A DNA stretch of 48,858 nucleotides from Chloroflexota bacterium (GTDB lineage Bacteria > Chloroflexota > Dehalococcoidia > SM23-28-2 > JACOUE01): NCBI GenBank assembly GCA_016178045.1, contig JACOUE010000038.1:1-48858 (forward strand), written 5' to 3'. Shown piece by piece: positions 3,979 through 43,402 of this stretch (its first letter is position 1; each line of letters begins with the position of its first letter). The notes under the pieces were generated by a model, which did no database searches, was not told where the DNA came from, and saw only the letters and a program-made list of their open reading frames with translations. The position numbers and the translations under genes are program-made.

Positions 3979-3998
3979 GTCACGCCCCGGCGGGGCTG

Positions 3999-4115
3999 GT
4001 CATCGCGAGCCTGCCTGCCGGCAGGCAGGCGGAGCGAAGCGATCTCACGTTACCAATGGGAGTCGGGCCTTCTGAGTCGGCAGATTGCTTCGGGGCTTTC
4101 GCCCCTGGCAATGAC
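3999..4115. repeat. MITE/REP-like imperfect inverted-repeat element
   Basis: Outer arms gtcatcgcgag (3999-4009) / ctggcaatgac (4105-4115), 9/11 complementary. Inner arms gaagcgatct (4036-4045) / agattgcttc (4082-4091), 9/10. It contains a perfect 22-bp palindrome gcctgcctgccggcaggcaggc (4009-4030). Confidence 0.65.
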
Positions 4116-4203
4116 GGCGGGCCGTGGTCCCATGATACCGTCGCTTTGACGGATTCCGCCGCCGGCGCTACACTGGCAGCGTCACGCCGAGGGGACGCCT
4201 TGC

Positions 4204-5588: not shown

Positions 5589-5631
5589 AAGATTGCCCTC
5601 GCGCCGCGCTCCGTGCTACCCTGACCCCGCT

Positions 5632-7359: not shown

Positions 7360-7472
7360 CCTCCCTGCGTGACTTTTGTCCCATCCAGATCGGGACATAC
7401 GGCTCTTTCTCCAGATATGCGCCGGCCCCATGCTGATGTTAGGCTAGAACGTTCCGAAGAAAGGAGCGGGCC

Positions 7473-8006
7473 ATGGAGGTAAGCAACCGCGAGACCTGGG
7501 CGGCCCTTCACGGGATGTTCTTCGGCGCCATCTTCCTGATTGCGTTCGCGGGAGGGCTGGCGGGGCTGTGGAGCCTGCGACCGGAGTGGGTAACAGTCAA
7601 CGGGATCAGAGAGCGAATGTTCCGGCTTAAGGTCGGCGTGAGCGTGATGGCCGCCGTCGCCTGGGTGACGGTGGTAACCGGTACCTGGATCGTCTACCCC
7701 TGGTACAGGGCTGCACCGCCGGAGGATGCGACGGACCTCAGCAAGTACCCCAGAAGCCTGCTGCTTGAGACGCCGGGCAAGGAGCAGTGGCATACCTTCG
7801 GGATGGAATGGAAAGAGCACGTTGCCTGGATGTCTCCGATCCTGGCAACGGCTGTGGCGTTCATCGTCCTTTACTATGGAAACCAGCTCATCGTCGATAA
7901 GAAGCTGCGCTACGCCAGCATCGTGCTCTATATTCTCGCCTTCGCCGCGGCCGGCGTCGCCGGTGCCCTGGGCGCCTTCATCACGAAGGCGGCCCCGATC
8001 CTGTAG
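7473..8006 (+). CDS. Hypothetical multi-TM membrane protein
   Basis: 177 aa with about four hydrophobic helices; RBS gaaaggagcgggcc before ATG. Confidence 0.75.
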   Translation: MEVSNRETWAALHGMFFGAIFLIAFAGGLAGLWSLRPEWVTVNGIRERMFRLKVGVSVMAAVAWVTVVTGTWIVYPWYRAAPPEDATDLSKYPRSLLLETPGKEQWHTFGMEWKEHVAWMSPILATAVAFIVLYYGNQLIVDKKLRYASIVLYILAFAAAGVAGALGAFITKAAPIL

Positions 8007-8015
8007 GAGGAAGCC

Positions 8016-8414
8016 ATGGCAACGATTAGAGTCGAACGTGCGGATGGGCGGACCGTCGACGAAATCGAGTGGAAGGCCGAAGAGCTGGAGATCGTTGAGC
8101 GCCCCAACGGGGCGGCAGCGGCGGCCATCCTCTCGGCTGGTTTCGGCGCCCTCGTCCTGGGTCTTCTCGCCAGTCTCTCCGAGGCCAGCACCGCCGCCCA
8201 CGACTGGTTCGACTTTCAGGCGCGTGTGGGGCCCCTGAGCGGGAAGACTATCATGTCGGTCGTCGCCTACGTCGCGTCCTGGGCGGTGCTCGCTCCCGTG
8301 ATGTGGAAGCGGAGCTTCGCCCTCAATACGGTCTTCGTGATCGCGGCGGTCCTGATCGGCGCCGGACTGGTCGGCACCTTCCCCAAGTTCTTCGAACTGT
8401 TCGCCCCCGAATAG
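8016..8414 (+). CDS. Hypothetical membrane protein (about three TM)
   Basis: 132 aa; RBS aggagg before ATG 8016; 9 bp downstream of the previous gene. Confidence 0.75.
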   Translation: MATIRVERADGRTVDEIEWKAEELEIVERPNGAAAAAILSAGFGALVLGLLASLSEASTAAHDWFDFQARVGPLSGKTIMSVVAYVASWAVLAPVMWKRSFALNTVFVIAAVLIGAGLVGTFPKFFELFAPE

Positions 8415-8432
8415 ACGCCGCCGGCGGGACGA

Positions 8433-8645
8433 CTACGGGACGTCGAACTCGGTCTCTTCGCCGTCGAGCCCGACCTTGATGGTGATATTGCGGTCGTCGC
8501 CGGGGAACTCGTAGGCCACATTCCCCGTCCACTTGTTCCAGACGAGGGTACGCATGTCTTCGTCCAGAAGCACGTAGGCGGTGAAAGCTAAGGCGAAGAC
8601 GGTGATGATCGTCCCAATCGGCAGGAAGAAGCGAAACGGGATCAC
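8433..8645 (-). CDS. Hypothetical small single-TM protein
   Basis: GTG start at 8645 preceded by aaggaggtgg; VIPFRFFLPIGTIITVFALAFTAYVLLDEDMRTLVWNKWTGNVAYEFPGDDRNITIKVGLDGEETEFDVP. Confidence 0.65.
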   Translation of the reverse strand: MIPFRFFLPIGTIITVFALAFTAYVLLDEDMRTLVWNKWTGNVAYEFPGDDRNITIKVGLDGEETEFDVP

Positions 8646-8671
8646 GGCGTCCACCTCCTTCCGGCCCTGCG

Positions 8672-9796
8672 TCAGTCTCGAGGGCCAGGGTACTGAGGGT
8701 ATCCGGTTACCAGTATATCCTCCCCCAGCCGGCGGACGCTGACGTCGCGCAGGCGGAGGGCGTCGGCCATGCGGTAGGCGCCCCGGCCGGCCACGGCGGC
8801 GGGGGCATCGGCCGCGCCGATGATCGCCGGGCCGATGACGGCGTGCACTTTGTCCACCAGCCCCCGGTCGAAGAGGGACCCCAGGAGGACGCCGCCGCCT
8901 TCCACCAGCAGCGACACGACGCCCCGCTCGGCCAGGGCGACGAGGAGGGGGTAGGGGTCCACGTGCTCGCCCTCGCGCGGCAGCAGGAGCACCTCCGCCC
9001 CCGCCGCCTCGACCGAGGCGCGCCACGCCAACGAAGTGTCGTCCGCCGTAGCGACCAGGGTCGGCGCGGGGCCGGTCAGTATCTGGGCCATGGGCGGAGT
9101 GCGGCCGCGCGTGTCCACGACCACCCGCAGGGGCTGGCGCCGCGCCGTGCGGCCTCCCGGCCTCGCCGTCAGGAGCGGGTCGTCGATGACGACGGTGCCG
9201 GAGCCGACCATGATGGCGTCGATCCGCGTGCGCAGGCGGTGCGCCCAGGCCCGCGCCTGCGGCCCCGCCACCCAGCGGGAGTCGCCGCTGGCGGCGGCGA
9301 TGCGGCCGTCCAGGCTGGCCGCGAACTTGGCGATGACGAAGGGCAGGCGGGCGAGGCGGTGCTTCACGTACGCCTCCAGCAGCCGCCGCGCGGCTTCCTC
9401 GCCCTCACCCACGGTCACCTTGAGTCCGGCGGCCTCCAGGGCGGCGCGGCCGCCGCCGTTAACGCTGGGGTCGGGGTCGAGCATGGCGATGTGGACCTCG
9501 CTGACGCCGGCCTCGAGGATCGCGTCGACGCAGGGAGGGGTGCGGCCCTGGTGGCAGCACGGCTCCAGGCTGACGTAGAGGGCGCCGCCGCGGGCGGCCT
9601 CGCCCGCCCGCGACAGGGCGACGACCTCCGCGTGAGGGCCGGGCGGGGGCTGCGTGGCCCCTTCCCCCACGATGCGGCCGTCTCTGACCACGACAGCCCC
9701 GACCGCCGGGTTGGGGGACGTCGTCCCCAGGACGCGGCGGGCCAGGCGGAGGGCGCGCGCCATGTACGGGTTCACAGCGTGACTATCATATCGCAT
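8672..9796 (-). CDS. ribD: Bifunctional riboflavin biosynthesis deaminase/reductase
   Basis: HAEVVALSRAG and SLEPCCHQGRTPPC deaminase zinc motifs; TSPNPAVGAVVV; C-terminal reductase domain (ASLDGRIAAASGDSRWV). Confidence 0.93.
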   Translation of the reverse strand: MRYDSHAVNPYMARALRLARRVLGTTSPNPAVGAVVVRDGRIVGEGATQPPPGPHAEVVALSRAGEAARGGALYVSLEPCCHQGRTPPCVDAILEAGVSEVHIAMLDPDPSVNGGGRAALEAAGLKVTVGEGEEAARRLLEAYVKHRLARLPFVIAKFAASLDGRIAAASGDSRWVAGPQARAWAHRLRTRIDAIMVGSGTVVIDDPLLTARPGGRTARRQPLRVVVDTRGRTPPMAQILTGPAPTLVATADDTSLAWRASVEAAGAEVLLLPREGEHVDPYPLLVALAERGVVSLLVEGGGVLLGSLFDRGLVDKVHAVIGPAIIGAADAPAAVAGRGAYRMADALRLRDVSVRRLGEDILVTGYPQYPGPRD

Positions 9797-9849
9797 CGGC
9801 TGAGCGTCCCCCGCACTGGTATGCTAATATCGGCAGGGACTGACACGAA

Positions 9850-10548
9850 ATGAGCGAGCCTCAGGCAGACGCCCGTAGGGTCCGCGAGCTGATGGTGCGG
9901 GGGATCGTGGTGGGCATGTTCGCCGAGAACTGCTGGATCATCGGCTCCCGCCGCACCCGCGAAGGCATCGTGATCGATCCGGGCGACCAGGCGCAGGACA
10001 TCCTGAACCTGGCGAAAGACCTGGGGGTCAACGTCAAGCTGATCGCCAACTCCCACGGCCACCTCGACCACGTCATGGGCGTTCGAGGGGTGCAGGAGGC
10101 GACCGGCGCCGAGTTCCTGCTCCACCCCGAGGAGCTGGTCATCGCCCAGGGGTCGGCGCGGGCGGCGGCCATGTGGCTGGGCCGGTCGGTCGAGCCCCCG
10201 CCGGACCCCGACCACTTCATCGCCGACGGCGACGAAGTGGAGGTGGACGGGGTGAAGCTGAAGGTGATCCACACGCCCGGCCACACTCCCGGCAGCGTCT
10301 CCTTCTACACGGAGGGGATGCTGTTCAGCGGCGACACCCTCTTCCGCGGCTCCATCGGCCGCACGGACCTGCCCGGGGGCAGCTACGAACAGGAGATGGC
10401 CAGCATCGTCGACAAGCTGCTCCAACTGCCGGACGACACCATCGTCCTGCCGGGTCACATGCAGGAGACGAAGATCGCCATCGAGCGCCAGACCAACCCC
10501 TTCGTGCTCGACGAGATCAGCCGCCGGCGGGGCGAGGGCGGCCGCTGA
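9850..10548 (+). CDS. MBL-fold hydrolase (glyoxalase II-like)
   Basis: NSHGHLDHVMG, HTPGHTPGSVSF, FSGDTLFRGSIGRTDLPGG, VLPGHM. Confidence 0.92.
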   Translation: MSEPQADARRVRELMVRGIVVGMFAENCWIIGSRRTREGIVIDPGDQAQDILNLAKDLGVNVKLIANSHGHLDHVMGVRGVQEATGAEFLLHPEELVIAQGSARAAAMWLGRSVEPPPDPDHFIADGDEVEVDGVKLKVIHTPGHTPGSVSFYTEGMLFSGDTLFRGSIGRTDLPGGSYEQEMASIVDKLLQLPDDTIVLPGHMQETKIAIERQTNPFVLDEISRRRGEGGR

Positions 10549-11141
10549 TGGCCGGCGAAAGGGCCCAGCGGGTCATCGAGAGGCTGCGCGCCCACCGCGA
10601 GAGGTTCGAGGCGTTCTGCCGCTCGCTCTCGCCCGAGGAGCTGGAGCGGCCGGTGCCCAACAGCAGCTGGACGGTGAAGGACTTCGTGAGCCACCTCGTC
10701 TCCATGGACCCCCTCCTGGGCTACTGGTTTCGGGGCGTTGCGTCCGGCCGGCTCGACGAGCCCACCCGAGACGCCGACGGGAGCACCCTGGACGTCGACC
10801 GCTGGAACAATGCGGAGGTAGCCCGGCGCCGCGACTGGCCCCTGGAGCGCCTCTTGCAGGAGGGGTCGGGCAACCGCGAGGCCCTCGTCGCCGTGCTGGA
10901 AGGCATCAGCGATGAGGACACGAAGAAGACCGTGCGCTTTCCGGGCGACAGCAAGCGGCCGCCGACTGATATGCCCCTGGGGCTGTTCCTCTCCGGCTGG
11001 AGCCGTCACGATGCCATGCACGCCGCCGACATGTTGAAGGCCCTGCCGGAGCGGGCGTCCGACCCGGAGCTGGTGGCCTGGCTCGACGACCCCGCCGTCA
11101 AGTGGTACCAGGACACGATGGCCGGGCCGCCCCGGCGGTAG
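10548..11141 (+). CDS. DinB/maleylpyruvate isomerase N-terminal domain protein
   Basis: ATG 10548 overlaps the upstream TGA (TGATG). Reads MAGERAQRVIERLRAHRERFEAFCRSLSPEELERPVPNSSWTVKDFVSHLV...WSRHDAMHAADML. Confidence 0.75.
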   Translation: MAGERAQRVIERLRAHRERFEAFCRSLSPEELERPVPNSSWTVKDFVSHLVSMDPLLGYWFRGVASGRLDEPTRDADGSTLDVDRWNNAEVARRRDWPLERLLQEGSGNREALVAVLEGISDEDTKKTVRFPGDSKRPPTDMPLGLFLSGWSRHDAMHAADMLKALPERASDPELVAWLDDPAVKWYQDTMAGPPRR

Positions 11142-11154
11142 AGGGAGCACTGTC

Positions 11155-11580
11155 ATGGAGCCCAGCCTCATCAAATTCGTCTCCGCGCTGCACGTCTTCT
11201 GGTACCGCCTGACCGGGGGCCTCATCGGCGGGAGGGCGGCGGGGGGAAACCCCGTCCTTCTGCTCACCACCTCCGGCCGCCGCACCGGCAACGAGCGCAC
11301 CACGCCGCTCCTGTACCTCCAGGACGGGGAGAACTTCGTGGTGGTGGCCTCGTACGGGGGCTCGGACTATCATCCGGCGTGGTGGCTCAACCTGAAGGCG
11401 AACCCTGAGTCGGCCGTCCAGATCAGGGGCGAGCGGCTGCGGGCAAAGGCGGAAGAAGCCGGCCCGGAGGAGAAGGCGCGCCTCTGGCCCCTCCTCACGA
11501 AGATGTACCCCGGCTACGACGATTACCAGCGGCGGACGGAGCGCCAGATCCCCGTCGTCATCCTGCGGCCCCAGGGGTAG
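11155..11580 (+). CDS. Deazaflavin (F420)-dependent nitroreductase, Ddn family
   Basis: VLLLTTSGRRTGNERTTPLLYLQDGENFVVVASYGGSDYHPAWWLNLKANPE. Confidence 0.9.
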   Translation: MEPSLIKFVSALHVFWYRLTGGLIGGRAAGGNPVLLLTTSGRRTGNERTTPLLYLQDGENFVVVASYGGSDYHPAWWLNLKANPESAVQIRGERLRAKAEEAGPEEKARLWPLLTKMYPGYDDYQRRTERQIPVVILRPQG

Positions 11581-11583
11581 CGG

Positions 11584-12192
11584 CTAGGCCGCGGCCGCGT
11601 CCGCCTCCGGCCCGGTGTCCAGGGCGAACGGCGGGTACCGCTCGACCAGAGAGGCGTGGTAACCGAGAAGTCGCGCCTCCCAGCGCAGGAACCCTCTCTG
11701 GAAGTTGTATATCCCCGCCGGGTAGCTCTCCTGGATCAGCACCAGCACGGCGGCCACCAGCCAGAGGATGGCCGAGACGATCCCGACCAGCGCCAGGACG
11801 AGGGCGCTGGGGATGCTGTAGATGAGCCGCAGCAGCGCAGAGCCCACGGTCGGGCTGCCGCCGGGCTGTACCTCGAACCGCACAAACTGCTCGGGTTTCT
11901 CCGTGGGGAAGCGGTCGGTGACGATCGCCAGGTAGGCGAGCAAGGCCATCAGCCAGCGCAGCCAGGTGGTCAGCCGCGGCGCGTCTTCCTCCAGGAACCG
12001 CTGCGCCCCCTTCTGTGAGACGAAGATCGCCGCCAGCACGGGGAATACGAGGTAGGCCAGGCCGTACAGCAAGCCGAAGATGTTCCCCACGACTGAGAGG
12101 ATGATCAATGCCAGGATGCGGATGAACATTTGGGTCCGCTCGAACTTCTCGGGAGGGGTCACGTCGAAGATGACGGGATAGTCGGCTGGCAT
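11584..12192 (-). CDS. DUF4389-like membrane protein
   Basis: FDVTPPEKFERTQMFIRILALIIL... multi-TM pattern with YPAGIYNFQRGFLRWEARLLGY. Confidence 0.65.
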   Translation of the reverse strand: MPADYPVIFDVTPPEKFERTQMFIRILALIILSVVGNIFGLLYGLAYLVFPVLAAIFVSQKGAQRFLEEDAPRLTTWLRWLMALLAYLAIVTDRFPTEKPEQFVRFEVQPGGSPTVGSALLRLIYSIPSALVLALVGIVSAILWLVAAVLVLIQESYPAGIYNFQRGFLRWEARLLGYHASLVERYPPFALDTGPEADAAAA

Positions 12193-12207
12193 GGCGGCCT
12201 CCTTTCG

Positions 12208-12792
12208 CTAGTCCGAGTCGGCGCTACCGCGGAAGTCCTGGAAGGCGCGCGAGGGCGTCGGCTCGCTCTGGCCCTGGTACTTGCTCCCCAGCGCCGGCGA
12301 CCCGTATGGCCGCTCCACGGCGGTGGACATGCGCAGGAACGAGATCTGGGCGATCTTCATCGCGTAGTACAGGGCGATGGGCATCTGCGACTGGTTGGAC
12401 AGCTCCAGCGTCAGCTTACCCGTCCAGCCCGGGTCAACGTAGCCGGCGGTCGCGTGCACCAGGAGCCCCAGCCTCCCCAGCGACGACTTCCCGTCCACCC
12501 GGGCGACGATGTCGTCGGGCAGCGTCACGGACTCGATGGTGCCGCCCAGCACGAACGTCCCCGGCTGGACGACGAACGGCTCGTCGTCGGCGATGACGAC
12601 GCGCTCCGTCAGGTCGTCCATGGGCTGGCGGACATCGACGTAGGGCCGCCGGGTCACCCGGAAGACGCGGAAGATGCGGTCGAGGTGGAGGTCGACGCTG
12701 GCGGGCTGGAGGGCGTCTTCGCCGAAGGGATCGATGACGAGGCGGCCGGCTTCGATCTCCTGGCGGATGGACTTGTCGGAGAGGACGGTCAA
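12208..12792 (-). CDS. dcd: dCTP deaminase
   Basis: LQPASVDLHLD, VARVDGKSSLGRLGLLVHATAGYVDPGWTGKLTLELSN. Confidence 0.95.
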   Translation of the reverse strand: MTVLSDKSIRQEIEAGRLVIDPFGEDALQPASVDLHLDRIFRVFRVTRRPYVDVRQPMDDLTERVVIADDEPFVVQPGTFVLGGTIESVTLPDDIVARVDGKSSLGRLGLLVHATAGYVDPGWTGKLTLELSNQSQMPIALYYAMKIAQISFLRMSTAVERPYGSPALGSKYQGQSEPTPSRAFQDFRGSADSD

Positions 12793-12919
12793 ACGAGGCT
12801 GCCCCTTCGTGCCGGGTATGCTGGCGCCATTCTAGCACCCGCTTCTTCAGGGGGACAACCGCGACGAAGGGGGCGCCGGACCCCGGGGCGAGGGGCCCGG
12901 CGCCTGCGACCGAATGCTA

Positions 12920-13906
12920 TTAGATGCCGTAAGTGATGACCACGTTGGCGACGAGCTGCACGTCAGGCGACTGGCCCTCCGCGTAGGCGATGCCGCCCAG
13001 CGGGTAGGGACCGGTGACGCCGGAGTCGCAGGGGCTGCCGCCGAAGGGGGCGTACGAAGAGTTAGAAGCGCCCACCACGGCGCCCAGCGTCACGCCCAGC
13101 ACCTGTGCGAACCGGGTGGCCCGCTCGCCGGCGTCCTGGACGGCCGCCTCCATCGCGGCCCGCTCCAGGGCGGCGCAGTCGGCGATGGTGTAGGAGACGT
13201 TGGTGCCCTGGAGGCTGATCCCCGTCAGGTTGTTGGCGGCGTCGGTAGCCGCCTTCACAACGGCGTCGAGGTTGCCGAGGTTGCGCACCGTCGCCCGGAT
13301 GGTGGCGCTGCTGGAGTACGGGTCGTAGTAGGGGCTGATGATTACCTCAACGTCCTCGCGGGCCACACCGCTGGCGACGATGGCGTCCACCACCGGCTGG
13401 ACGTCGGCCTCCGTGATCTGCTTGACCTGGCCGGCGCTGTCCGCCTCCGGCTCGCTGGGAGCGACCCCGGGCTCCGTCCCGCCGCCCGCGGGCTCGATGC
13501 GGGTAGCATTGCTGCCCAAGTAGACCTCCAGGATGGCCCTGTCGGCCTGGACGGTGGCGGAACCGAAGCCCTGGACGGTGATGCCCGTCTGGCTTACCTG
13601 AAGCGCGGGGTACGGGAAGAAGTCGGGCGCGATCTCCCTGACTGCCGAATAGAAGCCCGGTGCGGCCGGAGCTCCGGGCGGTAGGGCCACTTGGCCCGCT
13701 TGGCCCGCTTGGCCCTCGTCCTTGGCGGCACTGCCTCCCCGGGTGACGTTCTGATCGGCCTCCAACGCGGCGACCGCGAGGCCACGGTTGGTGCGGATGC
13801 CCGCCTCCTCGCCTCCGCCGCCGGGGCCACCGCCCCCGCAGGCCACGGCCAGGAGGGCCAGCGCCGCCACCGTGACCGCGGCGAGCGCGAATCCCTTGCC
13901 TCTCAT
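12920..13906 (-). CDS. SIMPL (DUF541) domain lipoprotein
   Basis: Lipobox LLAVACGGGG; ITVQGFGSATVQADRAILEVYLGS...; ERATRFAQVLGVTLGAVVGASN. Confidence 0.85.
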   Translation of the reverse strand: MRGKGFALAAVTVAALALLAVACGGGGPGGGGEEAGIRTNRGLAVAALEADQNVTRGGSAAKDEGQAGQAGQVALPPGAPAAPGFYSAVREIAPDFFPYPALQVSQTGITVQGFGSATVQADRAILEVYLGSNATRIEPAGGGTEPGVAPSEPEADSAGQVKQITEADVQPVVDAIVASGVAREDVEVIISPYYDPYSSSATIRATVRNLGNLDAVVKAATDAANNLTGISLQGTNVSYTIADCAALERAAMEAAVQDAGERATRFAQVLGVTLGAVVGASNSSYAPFGGSPCDSGVTGPYPLGGIAYAEGQSPDVQLVANVVITYGI

Positions 13907-13940
13907 CTCTCTGTCTCCTTTCCGCTTCGCGGACGAAGCG

Positions 13941-14690
13941 CTATCTCAAGCCAGTTCGCCGGACGAGCACGACAGCCCCTGAGCCCAGCGCCAGGGCCCC
14001 CAGAGCAGCGGCCAGGGCGATCTCGGCGGCGCGCAGGGGGTCGATGCCGCCCTCGTCTTCCCCGGCGGCGGCGGTCTCGGCACCTTCCTCGGGGCCTGCC
14101 TCGGTGCGGTCCTCAGCCCGGGCGGCCGGCAGCGCAGGCGAGGGCGTCGCCTCGTCGCCGGTCGCCTCTTCGCCCGGTTCGGCTGCGCCCCCAGCTTCGT
14201 CTGGGGCGCCCAGGGGCGAAGCTTCCGGTTGCGCGGCCGGTGCTGCCGACTTCGGGGTGGGCGTGGGCGCAGGTACTTGCTCCGGCAACGCCTCGTCGGC
14301 GGCGAACATCTCGCTGGCTTTAGGAGCAGTTGCCTGTCGTCCCCCGCCCCCACCGGCGAAGTCGCCGACGTCCACCACCAGCACGGCGGCGAGGGCAACG
14401 GCGACGGCGGCGCCGCCAAGCCGCACGGACCAGGGGAACGCCCCGGCCAGGGGAGAGGGGCGCGGGTGGGTCACGTCCTCCGGCCGTACGGCGAAGGAGC
14501 GGGGGGCCCGTTCCTGGGGAAGGGTACGCAGCGCCTCGACGGTGAGGCGCAGCTCGTCCAGCTCACGACGGCAGGAGTCGCAGGCGGGGAGATGGCCCTC
14601 CACCTCCTCACGCTCGGCCTCGGTAAGACGCCCGTCCATATAGGCCGATATGAGGAGCCTTAGCCTCTCGTGACCTCTTCGCCACCACAT
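13941..14690 (-). CDS. Anti-sigma factor with zinc-finger (zf-HC2) domain
   Basis: RLRLLISAYMDGRLTEAEREEVEGHLPACDSCRRELDELR (Hx3Cx2C); central TM; long Ala/Pro-rich region. Confidence 0.85.
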   Translation of the reverse strand: MWWRRGHERLRLLISAYMDGRLTEAEREEVEGHLPACDSCRRELDELRLTVEALRTLPQERAPRSFAVRPEDVTHPRPSPLAGAFPWSVRLGGAAVAVALAAVLVVDVGDFAGGGGGRQATAPKASEMFAADEALPEQVPAPTPTPKSAAPAAQPEASPLGAPDEAGGAAEPGEEATGDEATPSPALPAARAEDRTEAGPEEGAETAAAGEDEGGIDPLRAAEIALAAALGALALGSGAVVLVRRTGLR

Positions 14691-14704
14691 AAGTCAGCTT
14701 CTCC

Positions 14705-15316
14705 TCAGGACGAATCCCTGACGTCGCTACTTAATTGACGGAACGGGTCCGGCAGAAGTTCCCGCTTCGTTAGCAGGATCAGCCGCAGCCGGCCCCGGCC
14801 GCGGCTGATGCGCGACTTGACCGTACCCAGCGCAGCCTTAGTGACCTCGGCGACCTCCTCGTAGCTCATGCCCTGCACGTCGCAGAGGACGACGGCCAGG
14901 CGCTGGTCGAAGGGGAGACGGGACAGGGCCTCCTGGAGGTAGGCGGCCAGCTCCAGCCGTTCGACCTGTTGCTCCGGCGAAGGCGCGCCCTCGGCCACCT
15001 CTACGGGGCGCTCGGAGGGGGTGGTCGCCTCCAGGGAGAGGCTGGGCCGGGCCTTGCGCCGGCGGAGCTCGTCGTAGCAGGCGTTGGCGGCGATGCGGAA
15101 GAGCCAGGCGCGGAAGCTGCCCCCCTTAAAGCGGTCCAGGTGACGGTAGGCGGCCAGGAACGCCTCCTGGGCGGCGTCCTCCGCCGCTTCACGCACGGCG
15201 AGGAGGCGGAGGCAGAGACTATAGAGGGGGGTCTGATAGCGGTGGACTAAGGTGTTGAAGGCGTCTAGGTCGCCAGCTTGCGCCCGGTGGAGGAGCTGGC
15301 TTTCGTCTGCTTCCAT
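14705..15316 (-). CDS. ECF RNA polymerase sigma factor
   Basis: AQAGDLDAFNTLVHRYQTPLYSLCLRLL...AAQEAFLAAYRHLDRFKGGSFRAWLFRIAANACYDELRRRKAR...LPFDQRLAVVLCDVQGMSYEEVAEV; start could also be 15343. Confidence 0.92.
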   Translation of the reverse strand: MEADESQLLHRAQAGDLDAFNTLVHRYQTPLYSLCLRLLAVREAAEDAAQEAFLAAYRHLDRFKGGSFRAWLFRIAANACYDELRRRKARPSLSLEATTPSERPVEVAEGAPSPEQQVERLELAAYLQEALSRLPFDQRLAVVLCDVQGMSYEEVAEVTKAALGTVKSRISRGRGRLRLILLTKRELLPDPFRQLSSDVRDSS

Positions 15317-15378
15317 GCAGTGAACTCTGGCAGGCAGGCCCATTCTATCAGAAGAGCGCGAAACCGTCGCCGCTGTTC

Positions 15379-15415
15379 GAGCGTCTAATATAACGTAGGG
15401 AGCGTCTGATATAAT
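15379..15415 (+). promoter_or_regulatory. Candidate lepB promoter with tandem operator-like repeats
   Basis: gagcgtctaatataa (15379-15393) and gagcgtctgatataa (15400-15414): 15-mers with one mismatch, 21 bp apart. The second overlaps TATAAT (15410-15415), 22 bp before ATG 15437. Confidence 0.5.
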
Positions 15416-15436
15416 CGCATTGCTACGTCCACAGCT

Positions 15437-16387
15437 ATGACTGGTTCCGAGGAAAGGGAAGAGGGGGGGCCGCCCGAGGGGAAGAGGGGGCCGGAAGAGA
15501 AGTACGACCCCTTTTCTACCGTCTGGTACGATCCTACCTATCCGCCCCGCTTTCAGTACTTGAACGTTCAGGAGAACCCGCAGGAACCCGAGCCGGCCCG
15601 AGAACAGGCGCCGCCGGCCCCGCGCGAGCCGGAGCCGGCCCGCGCCGGTCTATTCTCCCGGCCGGCCGCGCCTGAGCAGACTCCCTGGGAGGAGTACCGC
15701 CAGCTGTCGGAGGCGAGCGCGGCCGGGTACCAGGCTGCCCGCAGGAGTCGCTGGGCGGTCACCGTCCGCGAGATCATCGAGACGCTGCTGCTGGCGCTCC
15801 TCATCTTCCTGGCGGTGCGCGCCTCCCTCCAGAACTTCCGGGTGGAGGGCGCGAGCATGATGCCGGGCCTCCACACCGGACAGTACCTCATCGTCAACAA
15901 GCTGGCGTACGCTACCATCGACCTGGGGATGTTCGACTGGGTGCCCTTGTTTGACCCCGGGGAGGACTCCGTCCACCACCTCTTCTCGTCGCCCGCCCGC
16001 GGGGACGTCATCGTCTTCCGCGCCCCCCAGTCGCCGGAGCGTGACTTCATCAAGCGGGTCATCGGCGTTCCCGACGACGTCGTCCATATCGAGCCCGATG
16101 AGGGGATCGTTTACGTGAACGATAAGCCGCTGGAAGAGCCGTACGCCCTGGGGGGGACCACCTGTAGCGGCGGCACCGTCTCCTGCGGCCCCTGGACCGT
16201 CCCCGACGACTACTACTTCGTCCTGGGCGACAACCGCCAGAACAGCAGCGACTCCCGCGCCTTCGGCTTCGTGCCCGGGGAGAACATAATCGGCAAGGCG
16301 CTGATCTCGTACTGGCCTCTGGAGGACGCCGGCCTTGCCCCCAACCACTCCGTCTCCTTCGCCAAGTCCGCCCGTGCCGAGGAGTAG
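15437..16387 (+). CDS. lepB: Signal peptidase I
   Basis: FRVEGASMMPGLHTGQYLIVNKLAY; GDVIVFRAP; FIKRVIGVPDD; VLGDNRQNSSDSRAFGFV. Confidence 0.95.
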   Translation: MTGSEEREEGGPPEGKRGPEEKYDPFSTVWYDPTYPPRFQYLNVQENPQEPEPAREQAPPAPREPEPARAGLFSRPAAPEQTPWEEYRQLSEASAAGYQAARRSRWAVTVREIIETLLLALLIFLAVRASLQNFRVEGASMMPGLHTGQYLIVNKLAYATIDLGMFDWVPLFDPGEDSVHHLFSSPARGDVIVFRAPQSPERDFIKRVIGVPDDVVHIEPDEGIVYVNDKPLEEPYALGGTTCSGGTVSCGPWTVPDDYYFVLGDNRQNSSDSRAFGFVPGENIIGKALISYWPLEDAGLAPNHSVSFAKSARAEE

Positions 16388-21762: not shown

Positions 21763-21798
21763 ATGAATAAACGGATGGCTTCCCATCCGTTTATTCAT
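21763..21798. terminator. Bidirectional terminator-like hairpin between convergent genes
   Basis: atgaataaacggatgg-cttc-ccatccgtttattcat, perfect 16-bp stem. Confidence 0.7.
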
Positions 21799-21814: not shown

Positions 21815-22270
21815 CTAGTTCGGGAACGTCGTTTCGATCTTGCTGGACAGGTCGAAGAAGTACTGGAACGACTGGTTGAAGCGGTAGAAGAGGTCCCGCT
21901 TGTAGCCGTCGCGGGAGCGGGCGAAACCCTGCGGGTCCTCCAGGTCGATGGTGTTGAGAGTGTGGTGGAGGTCCGCCTTTCCGTTGTCCTTGACGTTAGT
22001 AATGAGCTCCTTCCACTTCTCGAAAGGGGCCTCCAGCCAGAAGTCCGCGTTGTCGACCTCCTGCTCCGTGCTCTCCTTCACCTCCGAGCACTCGAACGCC
22101 TCGAAGGTGAGGAGGTAGTACTTCTGGCGGTCGGGGACCTTGACGCCCACGACGGCGTCACAGGTGCCGATGCGGCGGTACTGCTCGTCGCTGTTGACCA
22201 GGCTGCGGACCGCCTCAAACCACTCCGTCGAGGGGAAGCTGGCCCTAGTCTTCACTCCACCTTGCGTCAT
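21815..22270 (-). CDS. SCP2-sterol-transfer-like protein
   Basis: 151 aa; YYLLTFEAFECSEVKE...ADFWLEAPFEKWKELITNVKDNG resembles the SCP2-like fold pattern. Confidence 0.55.
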   Translation of the reverse strand: MTQGGVKTRASFPSTEWFEAVRSLVNSDEQYRRIGTCDAVVGVKVPDRQKYYLLTFEAFECSEVKESTEQEVDNADFWLEAPFEKWKELITNVKDNGKADLHHTLNTIDLEDPQGFARSRDGYKRDLFYRFNQSFQYFFDLSSKIETTFPN

Positions 22271-22308
22271 CTCGGGTCTCCTCCTTCTAGCGCCCTCGTT
22301 CGCCGGTC

Positions 22309-23781
22309 TCAGGCGGCCTGGGCCGCTACCGGCTCCTCCGCGTACTTCTTCAGCGAGTAGTGGAGGCGCTCACGCCGCTCGGGCAGGCCGGCAGACTCGA
22401 GCCGGGCCAGGTAGTCGCGGACCCAGCGGCGCTTGAAGTACTCCAGCTTGCGGTAGCCGTCCAGGATCTGCTCCTTGATCAGGCCGCCGCCCAGCAGAAT
22501 GATCAGCGCCTCGCGGAGGACGTTGTCGTTCTCGTCGTCGTAGACCATGACGGCTTCGGCCTTGTTGAAGTAGGTGTGCACCTCCTCACGGCGGTCGTGC
22601 TTGCGGATGAGGAAGTACTTCAGGTGGCCGAGGCCGAAGGCGAGCTGGCGGGCGGTGTCCTGAATGCAGAGGCGGAAGATGTTCGACTCCGCCTCGCTGT
22701 GGGCGACGTACTCGCCCAGCTGGTAAAGGCCCATGAGGAAGCTGTTCGAGAGGATGTGCAGGACGGCTGACGTCTCGGTCCAGGCGCGGGCGTCGATGAT
22801 GGCGCGGTGGAAGTAGCCCGGGCTCTGGATGCCCATGCCGCCGCCGTTGCAGAGGGCGCGCTTGCGGAATACCTCGAAGTGGCGGGCGGCGTCGAACTCG
22901 GCGGTGGCGAGGTAGAGCTTGACCTCGTGGTAGCCGTACGACATCTCGGGGAGCCACTTGCCGACGGTGTCGCCGGCGAGGAGCGCCTTCTCGCAGAAGA
23001 AGGTGCAGAGCTGGCACATGGCCCGCTCGATCTCATCCGGCAGCGGCTCGATGCTCTCCCAGGGGATGTCGGTGGCCGGACGCCAGCGGCGCTGGATCGC
23101 CTCCTCGTAGAGGTCGGCGGCGTTGTCGCTCCAAAGCTCCGCCTTCTCGTAGATGGTGTAGCCCATGGCGGGGACGCCGGGGATGGGGTAGGCGCCGCGG
23201 GGCATCTCGGTCTGGTAAGGCCAGTAATCCGGGATGTCGCCGTAGGTGCCGACGTTCAGGGCGCCGACGGTGAGGCCCTTCTTGCCCGGCCGCACCCGGA
23301 TGCCCCACTCCGTGGGGACCTTCATCCAGCTGAGGTCGAGGGCCTGCTCGCCGGCCTCGGCGCTTCGAGCGGCACCGGGCTGGGCGGCACCGCGCAGGCG
23401 CTCCTGCTGAGTGATGAACCGCTCGGCTTGGTCGGGGCGGAGGCCGGCGTCCATCTGGGAGATGAGCATCTCGGCCGTGGCGCCCAGGCGGAGGCCGCGC
23501 TTCACCAGCTCGTCCGGCCAGTCGTGCTTCTTCGCCGCCTCGGCCAGGTCGTCGGGGATGACGACTTCGCCGCCGGCGCGCATGGCTTCCTGCTGGGAGA
23601 TGAACTGCTCGGCGGCCTCGGCAGTAACGCCCGGCATCGCCAGCTGCTGCTTGACGGCCTCGGCCGGGAAGCCGAGGGCGAGGGCGCGGCGGACGAGGTC
23701 CAGGGGGATGTTGTTGTCCTGCGCGATCTTGACCAGGTCTTCGGGGATGTCAGGGCCTTGGGTCTGGGGCTCCTGGGCCAT
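22309..23781 (-). CDS. R2/ferritin-like superfamily protein lacking most diiron ligands, with two N-terminal helical repeats
   Basis: 490 aa. Clear paralog of the next two genes (LDLSW..., RAMCQLCTFFCEKALLAGDTVGKWLPEM..., FRKRAL.NGGG). At the ligand positions it has DAARH, LSNSF and QDTARQ in place of DEARH, (G/A)EGF and QDESRH. Confidence 0.8.
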   Translation of the reverse strand: MAQEPQTQGPDIPEDLVKIAQDNNIPLDLVRRALALGFPAEAVKQQLAMPGVTAEAAEQFISQQEAMRAGGEVVIPDDLAEAAKKHDWPDELVKRGLRLGATAEMLISQMDAGLRPDQAERFITQQERLRGAAQPGAARSAEAGEQALDLSWMKVPTEWGIRVRPGKKGLTVGALNVGTYGDIPDYWPYQTEMPRGAYPIPGVPAMGYTIYEKAELWSDNAADLYEEAIQRRWRPATDIPWESIEPLPDEIERAMCQLCTFFCEKALLAGDTVGKWLPEMSYGYHEVKLYLATAEFDAARHFEVFRKRALCNGGGMGIQSPGYFHRAIIDARAWTETSAVLHILSNSFLMGLYQLGEYVAHSEAESNIFRLCIQDTARQLAFGLGHLKYFLIRKHDRREEVHTYFNKAEAVMVYDDENDNVLREALIILLGGGLIKEQILDGYRKLEYFKRRWVRDYLARLESAGLPERRERLHYSLKKYAEEPVAAQAA

Positions 23782-23890
23782 GGGTCCTCCTTCTGAAAGG
23801 GGCCCTCTTTCGAGGGCTGATTGTCAGGATGCCATAACTACGGTTGGGGGTCAAGAGATTTTAGCGGGCGCTAAGGCGGGAGCGGTGGGC

Positions 23891-23920
23891 AAAAATCGGG
23901 CCGCGGCTCAGCCGCGGCCC
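23891..23920 (-). terminator. Rho-independent terminator downstream of the 23945-25036 gene
   Basis: Minus strand reads gggccgcgg-ctgag-ccgcggccc followed by gattttt. Confidence 0.7.
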
Positions 23921-23944
23921 TTACCTTTGGTCGTTAACCGGGCG

Positions 23945-25036
23945 TTAGTTCGCGGGCGGGTCAAGGAACGCCTTGAGGACAACGTTCATGCGGTCCCGGC
24001 GCTCCGGGAGGCCTGCGACGTCCAGGCGGTGCATGTACTCGTTTATTTGGCGGCGCCGGACCGCCAACAGCCTCTGCACGCCGACGTCGATGTTCTTGCG
24101 GCCGCCGCCGGCCAGGATGATGATCGCCTCGTCGAAGAAGGGGGTGGCAGCGGACGTGCCGAACTGGATGTCGAGGGAGAGGGGCCCTTCCACCTGGTCC
24201 AGGTAGTGGTGCAGCTCCTCCCGGCGCCAAGGCTGCGACTCCACGACGTACTTCAGGTGCATCACGCCGAACCCCAGGTGCCGCGACTCGTCCTGCGCGC
24301 AGAGGCGGTAGATGGTCTTCTCGGCCTCGTTCTGGCTGATGTACTCGCCGGTGCGGAAGAGGCTCTGGACGAATCCCTCCGCGAACACGTGCATGATGGC
24401 CGACATCTCGGTGAAGTCCTTGGCGTCGAGGATGGAGCGGAGGGCGGGCCCGGACTGGCCCTCGCTCAGGAGGCCGCCGCCGTTGGCCAGGGCGCGCTTG
24501 CGGAAGACGTCCAGGTGGCGGGCTTCGTCCATGATCTGGGTCAGGAGGAAGAGCTTGGTCTCGTAGTAGTCGGGGTTGATCTTCGGCAGCCACTGGCCGG
24601 GCGCATCGCCGGCGATGAACTCGACCTCGGTGAGGAAGGTGCAGAGCTGGCACATCGCCCGCTCGAGGTCGTCCGGCAGGGGCTCGATGGTGTTCCACGG
24701 TATGTCGGTGGCGGACGACCACTGGCGCTGGACGGCCTCTTCGTAGAGCAGGCGGGAGTTCTCGGACCAGGTGTCAGACTTGGACGGGTAGTACATGCCG
24801 GCCCGCGGGACGTTGTCGCGGCCGCGGGCGTCACGGGGCCTGAGGCTGTAGTTGATGCTGTGCTCCGGCACCTCGCGGCCCGCCTCGACCTCGTCGAGGG
24901 TGAGGCCGCGCCGTCCCGGCCGGACGCGCGTCGCCGTTACCTTGTGGCCGTCCTGGGGGTTCAGCCAGGAGAGGTCGAGCTCGGGGAGGTCCTCCTCGGT
25001 GGTGAGTTTCTCAAGGACGTCAGGACTAATGGCCAT
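23945..25036 (-). CDS. R2-like/ferritin-like diiron-carboxylate protein (ligand motifs intact)
   Basis: ATG 25036 (MAISPDVLEKL) with ggaggcg RBS; CTFLTEVEFIAGD, MDEARHLDVF, HVFAEGFVQSLF, QDESRHLGFGVMHL. Confidence 0.85.
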   Translation of the reverse strand: MAISPDVLEKLTTEEDLPELDLSWLNPQDGHKVTATRVRPGRRGLTLDEVEAGREVPEHSINYSLRPRDARGRDNVPRAGMYYPSKSDTWSENSRLLYEEAVQRQWSSATDIPWNTIEPLPDDLERAMCQLCTFLTEVEFIAGDAPGQWLPKINPDYYETKLFLLTQIMDEARHLDVFRKRALANGGGLLSEGQSGPALRSILDAKDFTEMSAIMHVFAEGFVQSLFRTGEYISQNEAEKTIYRLCAQDESRHLGFGVMHLKYVVESQPWRREELHHYLDQVEGPLSLDIQFGTSAATPFFDEAIIILAGGGRKNIDVGVQRLLAVRRRQINEYMHRLDVAGLPERRDRMNVVLKAFLDPPAN

Positions 25037-25092
25037 TGCCCGCCTCCATTGATTTAGCGACCGCTCAGTAACAGTGAGGTGAGGCAGCAATA

Positions 25093-25121
25093 GACTAAAC
25101 CCGCGGAGCGGGGGCTGTCAA
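25093..25121 (-). promoter_or_regulatory. Candidate promoter of the 23945-25036 gene
   Basis: Minus strand TTGACA (25116-25121), 17-bp spacer, TTAGTC (25093-25098); -10 is weak. Confidence 0.35.
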
Positions 25122-25219
25122 GGCGTGTGATGTGTCGGGAGGCTGCCCGCGGGCTGAAGCCCACGGCTACGTGAGTGAGGTGGGCGCGGGGGCTGTCAGG
25201 GAGCGCAGGGACGGCGGCG

Positions 25220-26290
25220 CTAGTTGGCCGGCGGGTCGAGGTACGGCTTGAGCCAGGGGCTCATGCGGTCGCGGCGGTCGCCAAGACCGGCCACCTCCAG
25301 GCGGTGCATGTATTCGTTCACCTGCTTGCGGAGGATCGCCTGGACGACCTCGACGCCTTTGTCGATGTCGCCGCGCCCGGCGAGCAGGGCGATGGCCTGG
25401 GTGGTGTACTGGGCGCCGGTGACGCCCTCGGTGCGCAGGATCGACTCGGCCTGGTCGTAGTACCAGTGCAGCTCTTCCCGCCGCCCCGGCTGCTCCTCCA
25501 CGATGTGCTTGAGGTGCATCACGCCGAAGGCGACGTGGCGCGACTCGTCCTGGGCAGCCAGGCGGTAGATCTTCTTCTCCGCCTCGTTCTGGGCGATGTA
25601 CTCGCCCATGCGGAACAAAGTCTGCACGAACCCCTCGCCCAGGATGTGGAGGACGGCGGACATCTCCGTGAAGTCCTGGGCCTCGATGATGCGGCGGAGG
25701 CCGTTCTCCGCTGTGGCCGACAGGAGGCCGCCGCCGTTGGCCAGGGCCCGCTTGCGGAAGACGTCCAGGTGGCGGGCCTCGTCCATGATCTGCGACAGGA
25801 GGAAGAGCTTGACCTCGTGGTAGTCGCTGTTGATCTTCGGCATCCACTGACCCGGTGTGTCGCCGGCGATGAACTCGACCTCGGTGAGGAAGGTGCAGAG
25901 CTGGCACATGGCCAGCTCCATGTTGTCGGGCAGGGGCTCGATGGTCTCCCAGGGGACGTCGGTGGCGGAGGACCACTGGCGCTGGACGGCCTCCTCGTAG
26001 AGGAGTCGTAAGTTGTCAGCGTAGACATCGGCCCGCTCCTGGTAGGGGAGCTTCACGCGGAGGGCCTCGGGCCGGGCGACGGCGCCGCGGGGCCGGAAGG
26101 TGGCGTTATCGCTGCGCTGGGGGACGTCGCCGTAGGGGCCGATCTCCACTTCGTCCAGGGTGAGGCCGCGCTTGCCGGGCTTCGCCCTGATCCCCCAGGC
26201 GTTGTCGAGGTTGAGCCAGCTCAGGTCTAGAGGCGCGACTTCGCTGGTTTCCGTACGTAGCTGCTCGAGGACTTCCGGGCTGATAGCCAT
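25220..26290 (-). CDS. R2-like/ferritin-like diiron-carboxylate protein (ligand motifs intact)
   Basis: ATG 26290 (MAISPEVLEQL); CTFLTEVEFIAGD, MDEARHLDVF, HILGEGFVQTLF, QDESRHVAFGVMHLKH. Confidence 0.85.
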   Translation of the reverse strand: MAISPEVLEQLRTETSEVAPLDLSWLNLDNAWGIRAKPGKRGLTLDEVEIGPYGDVPQRSDNATFRPRGAVARPEALRVKLPYQERADVYADNLRLLYEEAVQRQWSSATDVPWETIEPLPDNMELAMCQLCTFLTEVEFIAGDTPGQWMPKINSDYHEVKLFLLSQIMDEARHLDVFRKRALANGGGLLSATAENGLRRIIEAQDFTEMSAVLHILGEGFVQTLFRMGEYIAQNEAEKKIYRLAAQDESRHVAFGVMHLKHIVEEQPGRREELHWYYDQAESILRTEGVTGAQYTTQAIALLAGRGDIDKGVEVVQAILRKQVNEYMHRLEVAGLGDRRDRMSPWLKPYLDPPAN

Positions 26291-38780: not shown

Positions 38781-40012
38781 TCAGAACGAGATGGGTAGCG
38801 CCTTCAGGCCGCGGATGATAAACGTGCCGCCCCACTGCACCTCGTCGCCGGCGAGGCGCGGGTCGGGGAACCGCTGGAGCAGGGTGCCGATGGCGGTCTG
38901 CGCCTCCGCGCGGGCCAGGGCAGCGCCCAGGCAGAAGTGGATGCCGTCGCCGAAGGCCACGTGAGGGTTGTCCTTCCGGCCTATGTCCAGCTCGTCCGGG
39001 TTCTCGAAGCGGGCGGGATCGTGGTCGGCTGCCCCAAGGAGCGTGAAGACCACTTGACCCGCCTCGACGTGCCGGCCGTCGATCTCCAGGTCCTCCCGGG
39101 CGACGCGGCCCGTGCCCTGGACCGGTCCATCGTAGCGGAGGAGCTCCTCGACGGCGCTCTGGATCAAAGACGGGTCGTCTCGCAGCCTCTCGAGCTGGTC
39201 GGGGTTGCGGAGCAGCGCCAGCATGCCGTTACCGATGAGGTTGGTGGTGGTCTCGTTGCCGGCGACGAGCAGCAGCATGGCGGTGGCCAGCATCTCGTCC
39301 TCGCTAAGGACCTGGCCCTGCTCCTCGGCGGCGATGAGGCCGCTCACCAGGTCGTCCTTCGGCTCCCGCCGCCGCTCGGCGATGACGCCCTGGAAGTAGC
39401 CGGCCAGCTCGAGCACGCTCTGGCGGCCGCGCTCCAGGACCTCGGGCGGGGCGAAGGCGCCGCCCAGGGTCGCCACGATTTCGTTGGACCACTGCTTGAA
39501 CCGGGCCCGCTCCTCCGGAGGGACGCCCAGCATCTCCGCGATGACGATTACCGGCAGGGGGTAGGCGAGGTCCTGGATGACGTCGAACCGGCCGTCCCCC
39601 CGGAGGGCGTCCAGGAGCTCGTCCACGATCTTCTGGATGCGGGGACGCAGGTTCTCCACCGTGCGGGCGGTGAAGGCCTTGCTCACCAGCTTGCGCAGGC
39701 GGGTGTGCTCGGGCGGGTCGGACGTCAGCATAGTCTGGGTGCGACCGAAGGGGCCGAACTCCTCCTCTATCCGCATCGCTTCCTGGGCGAAGCGGTTGCG
39801 GGCCTCGCGGCGGTTGGCGGAGAAGCGGGAGTCGGTCAGGACGGAGACGACGTCGTCGTAGCGGGTGAGGATCCACGCCTCCATGAGGTCGCTCCAGTGC
39901 ACGGGGTCCTCTTCCCGCATACGGCGGAACATCGGGTAGGGGTTGGCGTGGACCTTGGGATCGAGGGGGTTGTAGAAGAGGGTAGATGTTACAGGCTCGC
40001 CGGTGGCCTCGC

Positions 40013-40016
<4 letters not shown>
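38781..40016 (-). CDS. Cytochrome P450
   Basis: LLLVAGNETTTNLIGNG (I-helix), heme loop VAFGDGIHFCLGAALARAE. Confidence 0.95.
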
Positions 40017-42316: not shown

Positions 42317-43402
42317 TCACTTGCCGGAGGCCGCGCTCCTCCCTGACGGCTGCTTCCGCTTCAGGAAGATGGAGCCGTTGTCCACCCGCACGGAGTAAAT
42401 GGCAACCGGTCGGGCGGCGGGCGCCCGCAGCGGTTTGCCGGTGGCCAGGTCGAACTGCGAGTCGTGCCAGGGGCAGGTGACGGCGGTCCCCTCCACGCTG
42501 CCTTCCGAGAGCGGCCCGTTAGCGTGCGAGCAACGGTCCCCCAGGGCGTAGACGCGACCGCCGACGTTGAACAGCGCCACCTGGTCCCCCGCGAAGTAGA
42601 CAACGGTACTCTCGCCTTCGGGGACATCGGCGAGCCTGGCGACGGGCACCCACGGCCCCGCGCGCTCGCCCTCGGCGGCCGCGGCGGTTTCGTCGCCGGG
42701 GGCGCCCAGGCTGTCCAGCGTCTCCGCAAGCCCCATCGCCGTGCAGGTGAAGATGGGAGTGTCCCGCAGCGTGTACTGGCTGGACTCCGCCTCCCGCAGC
42801 TCCATCACTAGGTCCAGGAAGTCCGACGGCTCGTCGGTCTCAAAGGCGACGACGAACTCCTGGTCGTCGAGGCCGAAGGAGTAGGTCGTGTTCAGCTTGA
42901 CCGAAGGGTACTTCCGCCCGACCGCGATATGCTCGTCCATAATGCGCTGGCGCTCCTCCAGGGGCAGCTTGTACCACGCTCGCGTCTTCACGAAGGGGTA
43001 GACGAACAGGTACTTCGATTCGGTTGGCCGGATGACGGTGCGGTCCTCCGGGGCCTCGGGCTGGTCCTTGGCGGCGTAGACGGAGCGGCGGGTCATCGCT
43101 AGGTAGGAGTAGGGAACGGTCAGGTAGGGGCCCGTCGCCGTGCTGAAGAGGGCGGTGGTCAGCTGCTGCACGTCCTCCAGGCGCTCGCCGATCTGCCAGA
43201 GGAGGAAGTCGGCGTCGCCGCGGGCCCCCATCAGGCTGTAGCTTCGAACCAGGAGGCGATCGCCGAACGACTCGACCGTCCGGCAGAACTGCCGCTTCGA
43301 CTCCTCCCGCTCGGCGGCGGACAGCCGGCGCCAGGCGGGGTCGACCTTGAAGAAGGTGAACTTGACGATCTGGCGGCGGCTGCGCTGGCTCTCCTGGGAC
43401 AT
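42317..43402 (-). CDS. Chlorite dismutase/HemQ-family domain fused to a C-terminal Rieske [2Fe-2S] domain
   Basis: Cld-like VYPFVKTRAWYKLPLEERQRIMDEHIAVGRKYPSVKLNTTYSFGLDDQEFVVAFE; Rieske CSHANGPLSEGSVEGTAVTCPWHDSQFDLATG. Confidence 0.9.
   Translation of the reverse strand: MSQESQRSRRQIVKFTFFKVDPAWRRLSAAEREESKRQFCRTVESFGDRLLVRSYSLMGARGDADFLLWQIGERLEDVQQLTTALFSTATGPYLTVPYSYLAMTRRSVYAAKDQPEAPEDRTVIRPTESKYLFVYPFVKTRAWYKLPLEERQRIMDEHIAVGRKYPSVKLNTTYSFGLDDQEFVVAFETDEPSDFLDLVMELREAESSQYTLRDTPIFTCTAMGLAETLDSLGAPGDETAAAAEGERAGPWVPVARLADVPEGESTVVYFAGDQVALFNVGGRVYALGDRCSHANGPLSEGSVEGTAVTCPWHDSQFDLATGKPLRAPAARPVAIYSVRVDNGSIFLKRKQPSGRSAASGK

What the first reader, a model, noticed from the sequence alone, without database searches (positions are those of the whole stretch)
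21815..26290. Cluster of three R2/ferritin-like diiron paralogs plus an SCP2-like protein
Seen: three consecutive minus-strand genes share a distinctive N-terminal block (LDLSW...RxRPGKRGLTLDEVEIGPYGD) and a core RAMCQLCTF...GDTxGxWxPxI...RKRALxNGGG. They are followed by a 151-aa SCP2-like gene, then a perfect 16-bp hairpin. Established: ferritin-like/RNR R2-like proteins use Glu plus ExxH ligands for O2-activating diiron or Mn/Fe sites, and SCP2-type domains bind lipids. Inference: a multi-subunit lipid- or hydrophobe-oxidizing system with two intact and one degenerate subunit. I do not recognise a described pathway with this arrangement.
Basis: partly seen in the sequence, partly recalled or inferred. 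Interest (0 to 1): 0.78.

Follow-up and report, generated by a model that had tools for sequence, protein, structure and literature searches.

The report
Three-part lipid-linked metal oxidase operon
A little-studied group of aerobic Chloroflexota bacteria shares an uncharacterised set of genes that probably makes a metal-dependent oxygen-using enzyme from one working subunit, one metal-free look-alike subunit and one lipid-carrier-like protein, which nobody appears to have described as a unit.

Summary
Window 21815-26290 (minus strand) holds three paralogous R2-like (ferritin-superfamily) proteins and an SCP2-fold protein. Two paralogs (alpha1, alpha2) keep all six predicted metal ligands (E153, E185, H188, E233, E263, H266). 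The third (beta) has lost five, yet is under purifying selection. No Pfam or NCBIfam model recognises any of them above cut-off. Structure prediction places alpha in the R2/R2lox fold and gamma in the SCP2 fold.

The arrangement is conserved: beta forms one ancient clade, alpha-beta(-gamma) operons occur across aerobic Dehalococcoidia and some Gammaproteobacteria, and gamma occurs in 94 of the 97 class genomes that have alpha, even where unlinked. The conserved unit is alpha2-beta-gamma; alpha1 is a second alpha from another subclade, not a core subunit. Acyl-CoA, thiolase/ChsH2, P450 and Rieske genes are frequent but not universal neighbours.

Best explanation: an O2-activating di-metal oxidase with a catalytic and a metal-free subunit, to which the SCP2-like protein brings a hydrophobic substrate. 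Fold, metal site and functional linkage are well supported; lipid substrate and chemistry are inferred. It is not R2lox (cross-link residues absent), RNR R2 or AurF. A new variant of a known kind.

The parts
25220..26290 (-). alpha1: R2-like dimetal-carboxylate protein, ligands E153,E185,H188,E233,E263,H266 intact (numbering of the 370-aa ORF that starts at 26332); second alpha, from the stand-alone alpha subclade
23945..25036 (-). alpha2: R2-like dimetal-carboxylate protein, all six ligands intact; ortholog of the alpha that precedes beta in other genomes
22309..23781 (-). beta: metal-site-less paralog (A A H N T Q at the six ligand positions), under purifying selection
23341..23781 (-). N-terminal ~147-aa extension of beta with two similar helical-looking repeats; no Pfam match
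   Evidence: repeats read by eye from the translation
21815..22270 (-). gamma: SCP2-fold protein (sterol carrier protein 2-like), 38 bp downstream of beta
21763..21798 (.). 16-bp perfect inverted repeat with 4-nt loop between convergent genes, probable bidirectional terminator

Best explanation
alpha2-beta-gamma is an uncharacterised, O2-dependent R2-like dimetal (Fe/Fe or Mn/Fe) oxidase or oxygenase. alpha carries the metal site and does the chemistry. beta is an old paralog that gave up the site and now serves as a non-catalytic partner subunit, as in other diiron oxygenases with a dead paralog. gamma, an SCP2-fold protein, binds a hydrophobic (acyl, isoprenoid or steroid-like) substrate or product and presents it to, or carries it from, alpha-beta. 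Shown computationally: the folds, the ligand pattern, the single origin of beta, operon conservation, alpha-gamma co-occurrence and the association with heme-copper oxidase genomes. Inferred: physical complex, metal identity, O2 chemistry and lipid-like substrate. alpha1 is probably a second catalytic subunit with a related or altered substrate range.
For: Fold: alpha model pLDDT 88.6; the top PDB matches are class I RNR R2, Chlamydia NrdB and R2lox, with VlmB lower in the list (E 1e-5 to 1e-4). Profile matches to GkR2loxI at E 2e-4 align both ExxH motifs. Ligands: 92 proteins have all six; 53 lack E153, E233 and E263 together; none is intermediate. beta is one clade (100* support, 38 of 39 metal-less rows), with dN/dS 0.24-0.31 against 0.15-0.21 for alpha. 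Operon: in the genome-collection loci 45 of 75 alphas with room downstream are followed by beta; 25 of 44 betas are followed by gamma. Gene gaps are as short as 2-4 bp. Co-occurrence: gamma in 94 of 97 alpha genomes and in 3 of 198 without alpha, including genomes where gamma is unlinked. gamma: pLDDT 95, best PDB hit SCP2 2cx7 E 2.6e-5, then UbiJ-SCP2. Aerobes: COX1 in 91 of 97 alpha genomes against 85 of 198 others. Context: alpha'-gamma'-acyl-CoA DH-thiolase-thiolase-ChsH2-like in the same genome; LLM monooxygenase, P450, Rieske ferredoxin, CaiB and enoyl-CoA hydratase near relatives.
Against: No ferredoxin or reductase gene is consistently linked, so the electron source of a catalytic oxygenase is unidentified. 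Many alphas have no adjacent beta (30 of 75), so beta is not needed by every alpha. Several genomes have multiple alpha/beta copies and only one gamma, which fits a shared carrier better than a fixed subunit. No complex could be modelled and no ligand distances could be measured. Spacing between the first ExxH and E233 is 48 residues against about 65 in R2lox, so assignment of E233 rests on the alpha/beta contrast. Co-occurrence P values ignore shared ancestry.
Confidence: 0.55

Rival explanations
1. Housekeeping biosynthesis: the same alpha-beta-gamma catalytic unit, but it tailors an endogenous isoprenoid or membrane lipid (quinone, hopanoid-like or fatty acyl), with gamma acting as UbiJ does in the ubiquinone metabolon, instead of degrading external lipids.
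For: Kept in small genomes of 1.3-1.6 Mb; single alpha-beta-gamma(-gamma2) sets in complete genomes; in the window's relatives the operon sits beside rhomboid and cobalamin adenosyltransferase genes, not catabolic ones; UbiJ-SCP2 is among the top structural matches and UbiJ is proposed to hold ubiquinone intermediates for hydroxylases (PMC9499169).
Against: Other copies sit in acyl-CoA dehydrogenase/thiolase/ChsH2, P450 and Rieske contexts; about two thirds of the class lacks it.
Confidence: 0.2
2. alpha is a self-sufficient homodimeric oxidase (R2lox-like); beta and gamma form a separate regulatory or lipid-sensing module that is merely co-transcribed.
For: Many alphas stand alone; one paralog has gamma but no beta; in G251 alpha is unlinked from beta and gamma.
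Against: The alpha-then-beta order is recurrent, gene gaps are short, and alpha and gamma share nearly the same genome set.
Confidence: 0.12
3. An N-oxygenase, aldehyde-deformylating or azoxy-forming enzyme of the AurF/VlmB kind for a specialised metabolite.
For: VlmB and its homolog are among the structural and profile matches; one member touches the AurF model at E 0.0045.
Against: The extra AurF histidine four residues before the second ExxH is absent (C/A/S at 259); no biosynthetic cluster context; distribution is clade-wide and not sporadic.
Confidence: 0.08
4. An iron-storage, peroxidase or rubrerythrin-like protective protein.
For: Ferritin superfamily fold.
Against: R2-type fold matches best, not ferritin or rubrerythrin; an SCP2 partner and a dead paralog have no obvious role in storage.
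Confidence: 0.03

Closest known systems
R2-like ligand-binding oxidase (R2lox; GkR2loxI, PDB 4hr0)
   Same: R2 fold, four Glu and two His in two ExxH motifs, Phe at the radical-Tyr position, best profile match in PDB (E 2e-4); R2lox binds long-chain fatty acid at the metals (PMC6399176) and GkR2loxI is reported as an alkane hydroxylase (PMC10867098)
   Different: Val72/Tyr162 cross-link residues replaced by Ala156 and Met/Leu228; shorter spacing between helices; far below the NCBIfam R2lox cut-offs; paired with a dead paralog and an SCP2-fold protein
Bacterial multicomponent monooxygenases and phenylacetyl-CoA epoxidase (PaaA/PaaC)
   Same: Catalytic diiron subunit plus a paralogous subunit that has lost the metal site, plus small partners (family knowledge)
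   Different: No match to their Pfam models; no consistently linked reductase; SCP2-fold third component
Class I ribonucleotide reductase R2
   Same: Top structural matches, similar metal ligands
   Different: No radical Tyr (Phe192 in all alphas), no R1 neighbour in the window, own dead paralog
UbiJ SCP2 domain and Thermus SCP2 (2cx7)
   Same: gamma has the SCP2 fold; UbiJ is proposed to hold the hydrophobic tail of ubiquinone intermediates for hydroxylases (PMC9499169)
   Different: gamma is a single short domain that pairs with an R2-like oxidase; no Pfam or NCBIfam SCP2 match

Membership tests
R2lox | Four Glu and two His ligands in two ExxH motifs in the R2 fold | tested here: met
R2lox | Val (E1+3) and Tyr (E3-5) that form the ether cross-link | tested here: not met
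   Ala156 in 92/92 alphas; Met/Leu/Val at 228, never Tyr; the R2lox-like protein of L152 shows both residues
R2lox | Score above NCBIfam R2lox cut-off | tested here: not met
   28 bits against 194
R2lox | Bound fatty acid and Mn/Fe cofactor | not testable with these tools
   needs purified protein
Class I RNR R2 | Radical Tyr four residues after the first ExxH His (absent in class Ic) | tested here: not met
   Phe192 in 92/92 alphas
Class I RNR R2 | Pfam PF00268 above cut-off | tested here: not met
   about 17 bits against 33.6
AurF N-oxygenases | Extra His four residues before the second ExxH Glu | tested here: not met
   C/A/S at 259
Bacterial multicomponent monooxygenase / PaaA-PaaC | Match to Phenol_Hydrox or PaaA_PaaC Pfam models | tested here: not met
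   no hit in 67 members at E 0.01
Bacterial multicomponent monooxygenase / PaaA-PaaC | Catalytic subunit plus paralog without metal site | tested here: met
   (analogy in organisation only)
SCP2 | SCP2 fold | tested here: met
   2cx7 E 2.6e-5, TM 0.62/0.71, on a predicted model
SCP2 | Match to a Pfam or NCBIfam SCP2 model | tested here: not met
   0 of 33 members
SCP2 | Lipid binding | not testable with these tools
   needs assay

The most novel reading that the evidence does not exclude
A new class of multicomponent dimetal oxygenase in which an R2-type catalytic subunit works with a metal-free paralog and an SCP2 lipid carrier, defining a previously unrecognised O2-dependent lipid transformation that is core to aerobic Dehalococcoidia.
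Probability: 0.4. Interest if true: 0.82.

Novelty: new variant of a known kind. Interest (0 to 1): 0.62.

Why it matters
It joins two known building blocks, an R2-like oxidase and an SCP2 lipid carrier, in one conserved genetic unit. It provides a further ancient case of a metal enzyme keeping a dead twin. R2lox function has been a long-standing open question. A relative whose partner points directly at a hydrophobic substrate makes that question testable in a widespread and poorly known group of aerobic Chloroflexota, some of which have a proposed part in oxidising recalcitrant organic matter.

Tried and rejected
Ligand 1 was first taken as E151; nine alphas have Q151 while E153 is invariant in alpha and absent from every beta, so it was corrected to E153. 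Recent tandem duplication of alpha1/alpha2 was considered because of the high DNA similarity and rejected by the tree. A degenerate DNA pattern search of the genome found nothing. Single-sequence PDB search gave only chance hits. A plasmid search found only one remote hit. Paper searches for an SCP2-diiron or SCP2-R2lox pairing found none. The R2lox-like gene found in G003 (L152) aligns only weakly with the alpha profile, so it was used only to locate the R2lox cross-link residues.

Full report
WHAT IS THERE. The window region 21815-26290 carries, on the minus strand in transcription order, alpha1 (25220-26290), alpha2 (23945-25036), beta (22309-23781) and gamma (21815-22270), then a perfect 16-bp hairpin at 21763-21798. 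alpha2 and beta are 65% and 45% identical to alpha1. The hairpin is very stable (z -5.6), unique in the genome and lies between convergent genes, which fits a terminator. The host genome is a 2.0-Mb, 90%-complete assembly. Its nearest named matches are Chloroflexi/Dehalococcoidia metagenome assemblies.

FAMILIES. None of the four proteins reaches the cut-off of any Pfam or NCBIfam model. Scanning 67 alpha/beta members against Pfam and 33 gamma members against both libraries did not change this. The best weak hits for alpha are R2lox and the RNR small subunit. A family profile finds GkR2loxI in the PDB at E 2e-4 and aligns both ExxH motifs. The predicted alpha structure (pLDDT 88.6) matches class I RNR R2, Chlamydia NrdB and R2lox best, with VlmB lower in the list. 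The predicted gamma structure (pLDDT 95) matches sterol carrier protein 2 of Thermus (E 2.6e-5, TM 0.62/0.71), then UbiJ-SCP2.

METAL SITE. In an alignment of 145 distinct family members, 92 have Glu153, Glu185, His188, Glu233, Glu263 and His266 (alpha1 numbering). The other 53 all lack Glu153, Glu233 and Glu263, and nothing lies in between. The first ligand was corrected from 151 to 153, because nine alphas carry Gln151 but all carry Glu153. The window beta reads A A H N T Q. The residues around the sites (Asp184, Arg187, Asp262, Arg265 and the RKRA motif) are kept in both alpha and beta, so beta kept the scaffold and lost the metals. His229, one turn before Glu233, is invariant in alpha but not in beta; its role is unknown.

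EVOLUTION. A maximum-likelihood tree built without the ligand columns puts 38 of the 39 metal-less sequences in one fully supported clade (the exception is one very long branch, L130). The metal site was therefore most likely lost once, long ago, and the pair has been inherited since. beta is under purifying selection between close relatives (dN/dS 0.24-0.31, against 0.15-0.21 for alpha). In the same tree alpha2 groups with the alpha of the syntenic relative L026. alpha1 groups with stand-alone alphas, including the copy on contig C85. The local triplet is therefore one conserved operon (alpha2-beta-gamma) plus an extra alpha.

NEIGHBOURHOOD. In the genome-collection loci, 45 of 75 alphas with enough downstream sequence are followed by beta, and 25 of 44 such betas by gamma; every beta in those loci has an alpha in the same locus. 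Complete genomes typically hold one set. In the class, 97 of 295 genomes have alpha-family genes and 97 have gamma; 94 have both. This holds even in families where gamma lies elsewhere in the genome: nine sampled regions show gamma with no alpha or beta nearby (L118-L125 and L127). The nominal P value (3e-69) ignores shared ancestry, but unlinked co-retention is hard to explain without a functional link. Outside the class, Gammaproteobacteria hold the system rarely: 2 of 229 genomes sampled carry a gamma relative, one of them the genome on which the sample was centred. The genome-collection loci and the class genomes partly overlap, so the two counts are not independent.

FUNCTIONAL HINTS. 91 of 97 alpha genomes encode a heme-copper oxidase, against 85 of 198 others; the six exceptions are incomplete assemblies. 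That fits an O2-using enzyme. Elsewhere in the same genome a divergent alpha' and gamma' are followed by an acyl-CoA dehydrogenase, two thiolase-fold proteins and a ChsH2-like DUF35 protein. Thiolase-like aldolases with DUF35 partners cleave steroid side chains in other bacteria (PMC12329534). Relatives sit near luciferase-like monooxygenases, P450s, Rieske or 4Fe-4S ferredoxins, CaiB-type CoA transferases and enoyl-CoA hydratases (some of these names are read from the sequence and not from a model). No single electron-transfer partner is conserved. The operon is kept in genomes of 1.3-1.6 Mb, which suits a housekeeping role as well.

MECHANISM. Shown here by computation: an R2-type fold with a complete carboxylate/histidine site in alpha, a conserved metal-free paralog, an SCP2-fold partner and their genetic linkage. 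Inferred: alpha activates O2 at a two-metal site; beta forms a heteromeric partner that shapes or regulates alpha, as dead paralogs do in multicomponent monooxygenases and PaaA/PaaC (family knowledge); gamma delivers or removes a hydrophobic molecule, as proposed for UbiJ (PMC9499169). R2lox itself binds long-chain fatty acid at its metals (PMC6399176), and GkR2loxI is reported to hydroxylate alkanes (PMC10867098). These are analogies, not tests.

WHAT IT IS NOT. It is not R2lox proper: the cross-linking Val/Tyr pair is Ala156 and Met/Leu228, and scores are far below the family cut-off. It is not RNR R2 of the usual kind: Phe replaces the radical Tyr in every alpha and the Pfam score is below cut-off. 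It is not AurF: the extra His is missing. It matches none of the multicomponent monooxygenase or PaaA/PaaC models.

VERDICT. A real, conserved and uncatalogued system, best filed as a new variant of a known kind. The literature library gave no description of an SCP2-linked R2-like oxidase with a dead paralog, but that library does not hold most subscription journals.

Noticed in passing
window 42317-43402 (-): Chlorite dismutase/HemQ-like domain fused to a Rieske [2Fe-2S] domain in one 361-aa protein, an unusual combination.
   Followed up: no
window 38781-40016 (-) and 45530-46753 (+): A cytochrome P450 and a ferredoxin reductase-type flavoprotein within 25 kb of the operon; possible electron-transfer partners.
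   Followed up: no
L086 (own genome contig C29) 1444-7465: Divergent alpha'-gamma' pair followed by acyl-CoA dehydrogenase, two thiolase-fold proteins and a ChsH2-like DUF35 protein.
   Followed up: partly
L148 (G212) 3731-16308: Two complete alpha-beta-gamma sets within 13 kb, separated by P450-like, Rieske-like and 4Fe-4S ferredoxin genes.
   Followed up: partly
L069 and L080: MAG contigs titled Klebsiella pneumoniae whose alpha and beta cluster with uncultured Gammaproteobacteria; the record titles are probably wrong.
   Followed up: no
L144 (G251) 5496-7447: An FmdB-like zinc-ribbon gene sits between beta and gamma.
   Followed up: no
window 23341-23781 (-): The 147-aa N-terminal extension of beta has two similar repeats and is shorter in other betas; function unknown.
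   Followed up: no
alpha residue His229 (window alpha1 and alpha2): His four residues before Glu233 is invariant in 92 alphas and kept in only 10 of 53 betas; possibly an extra ligand or second-sphere residue.
   Followed up: no
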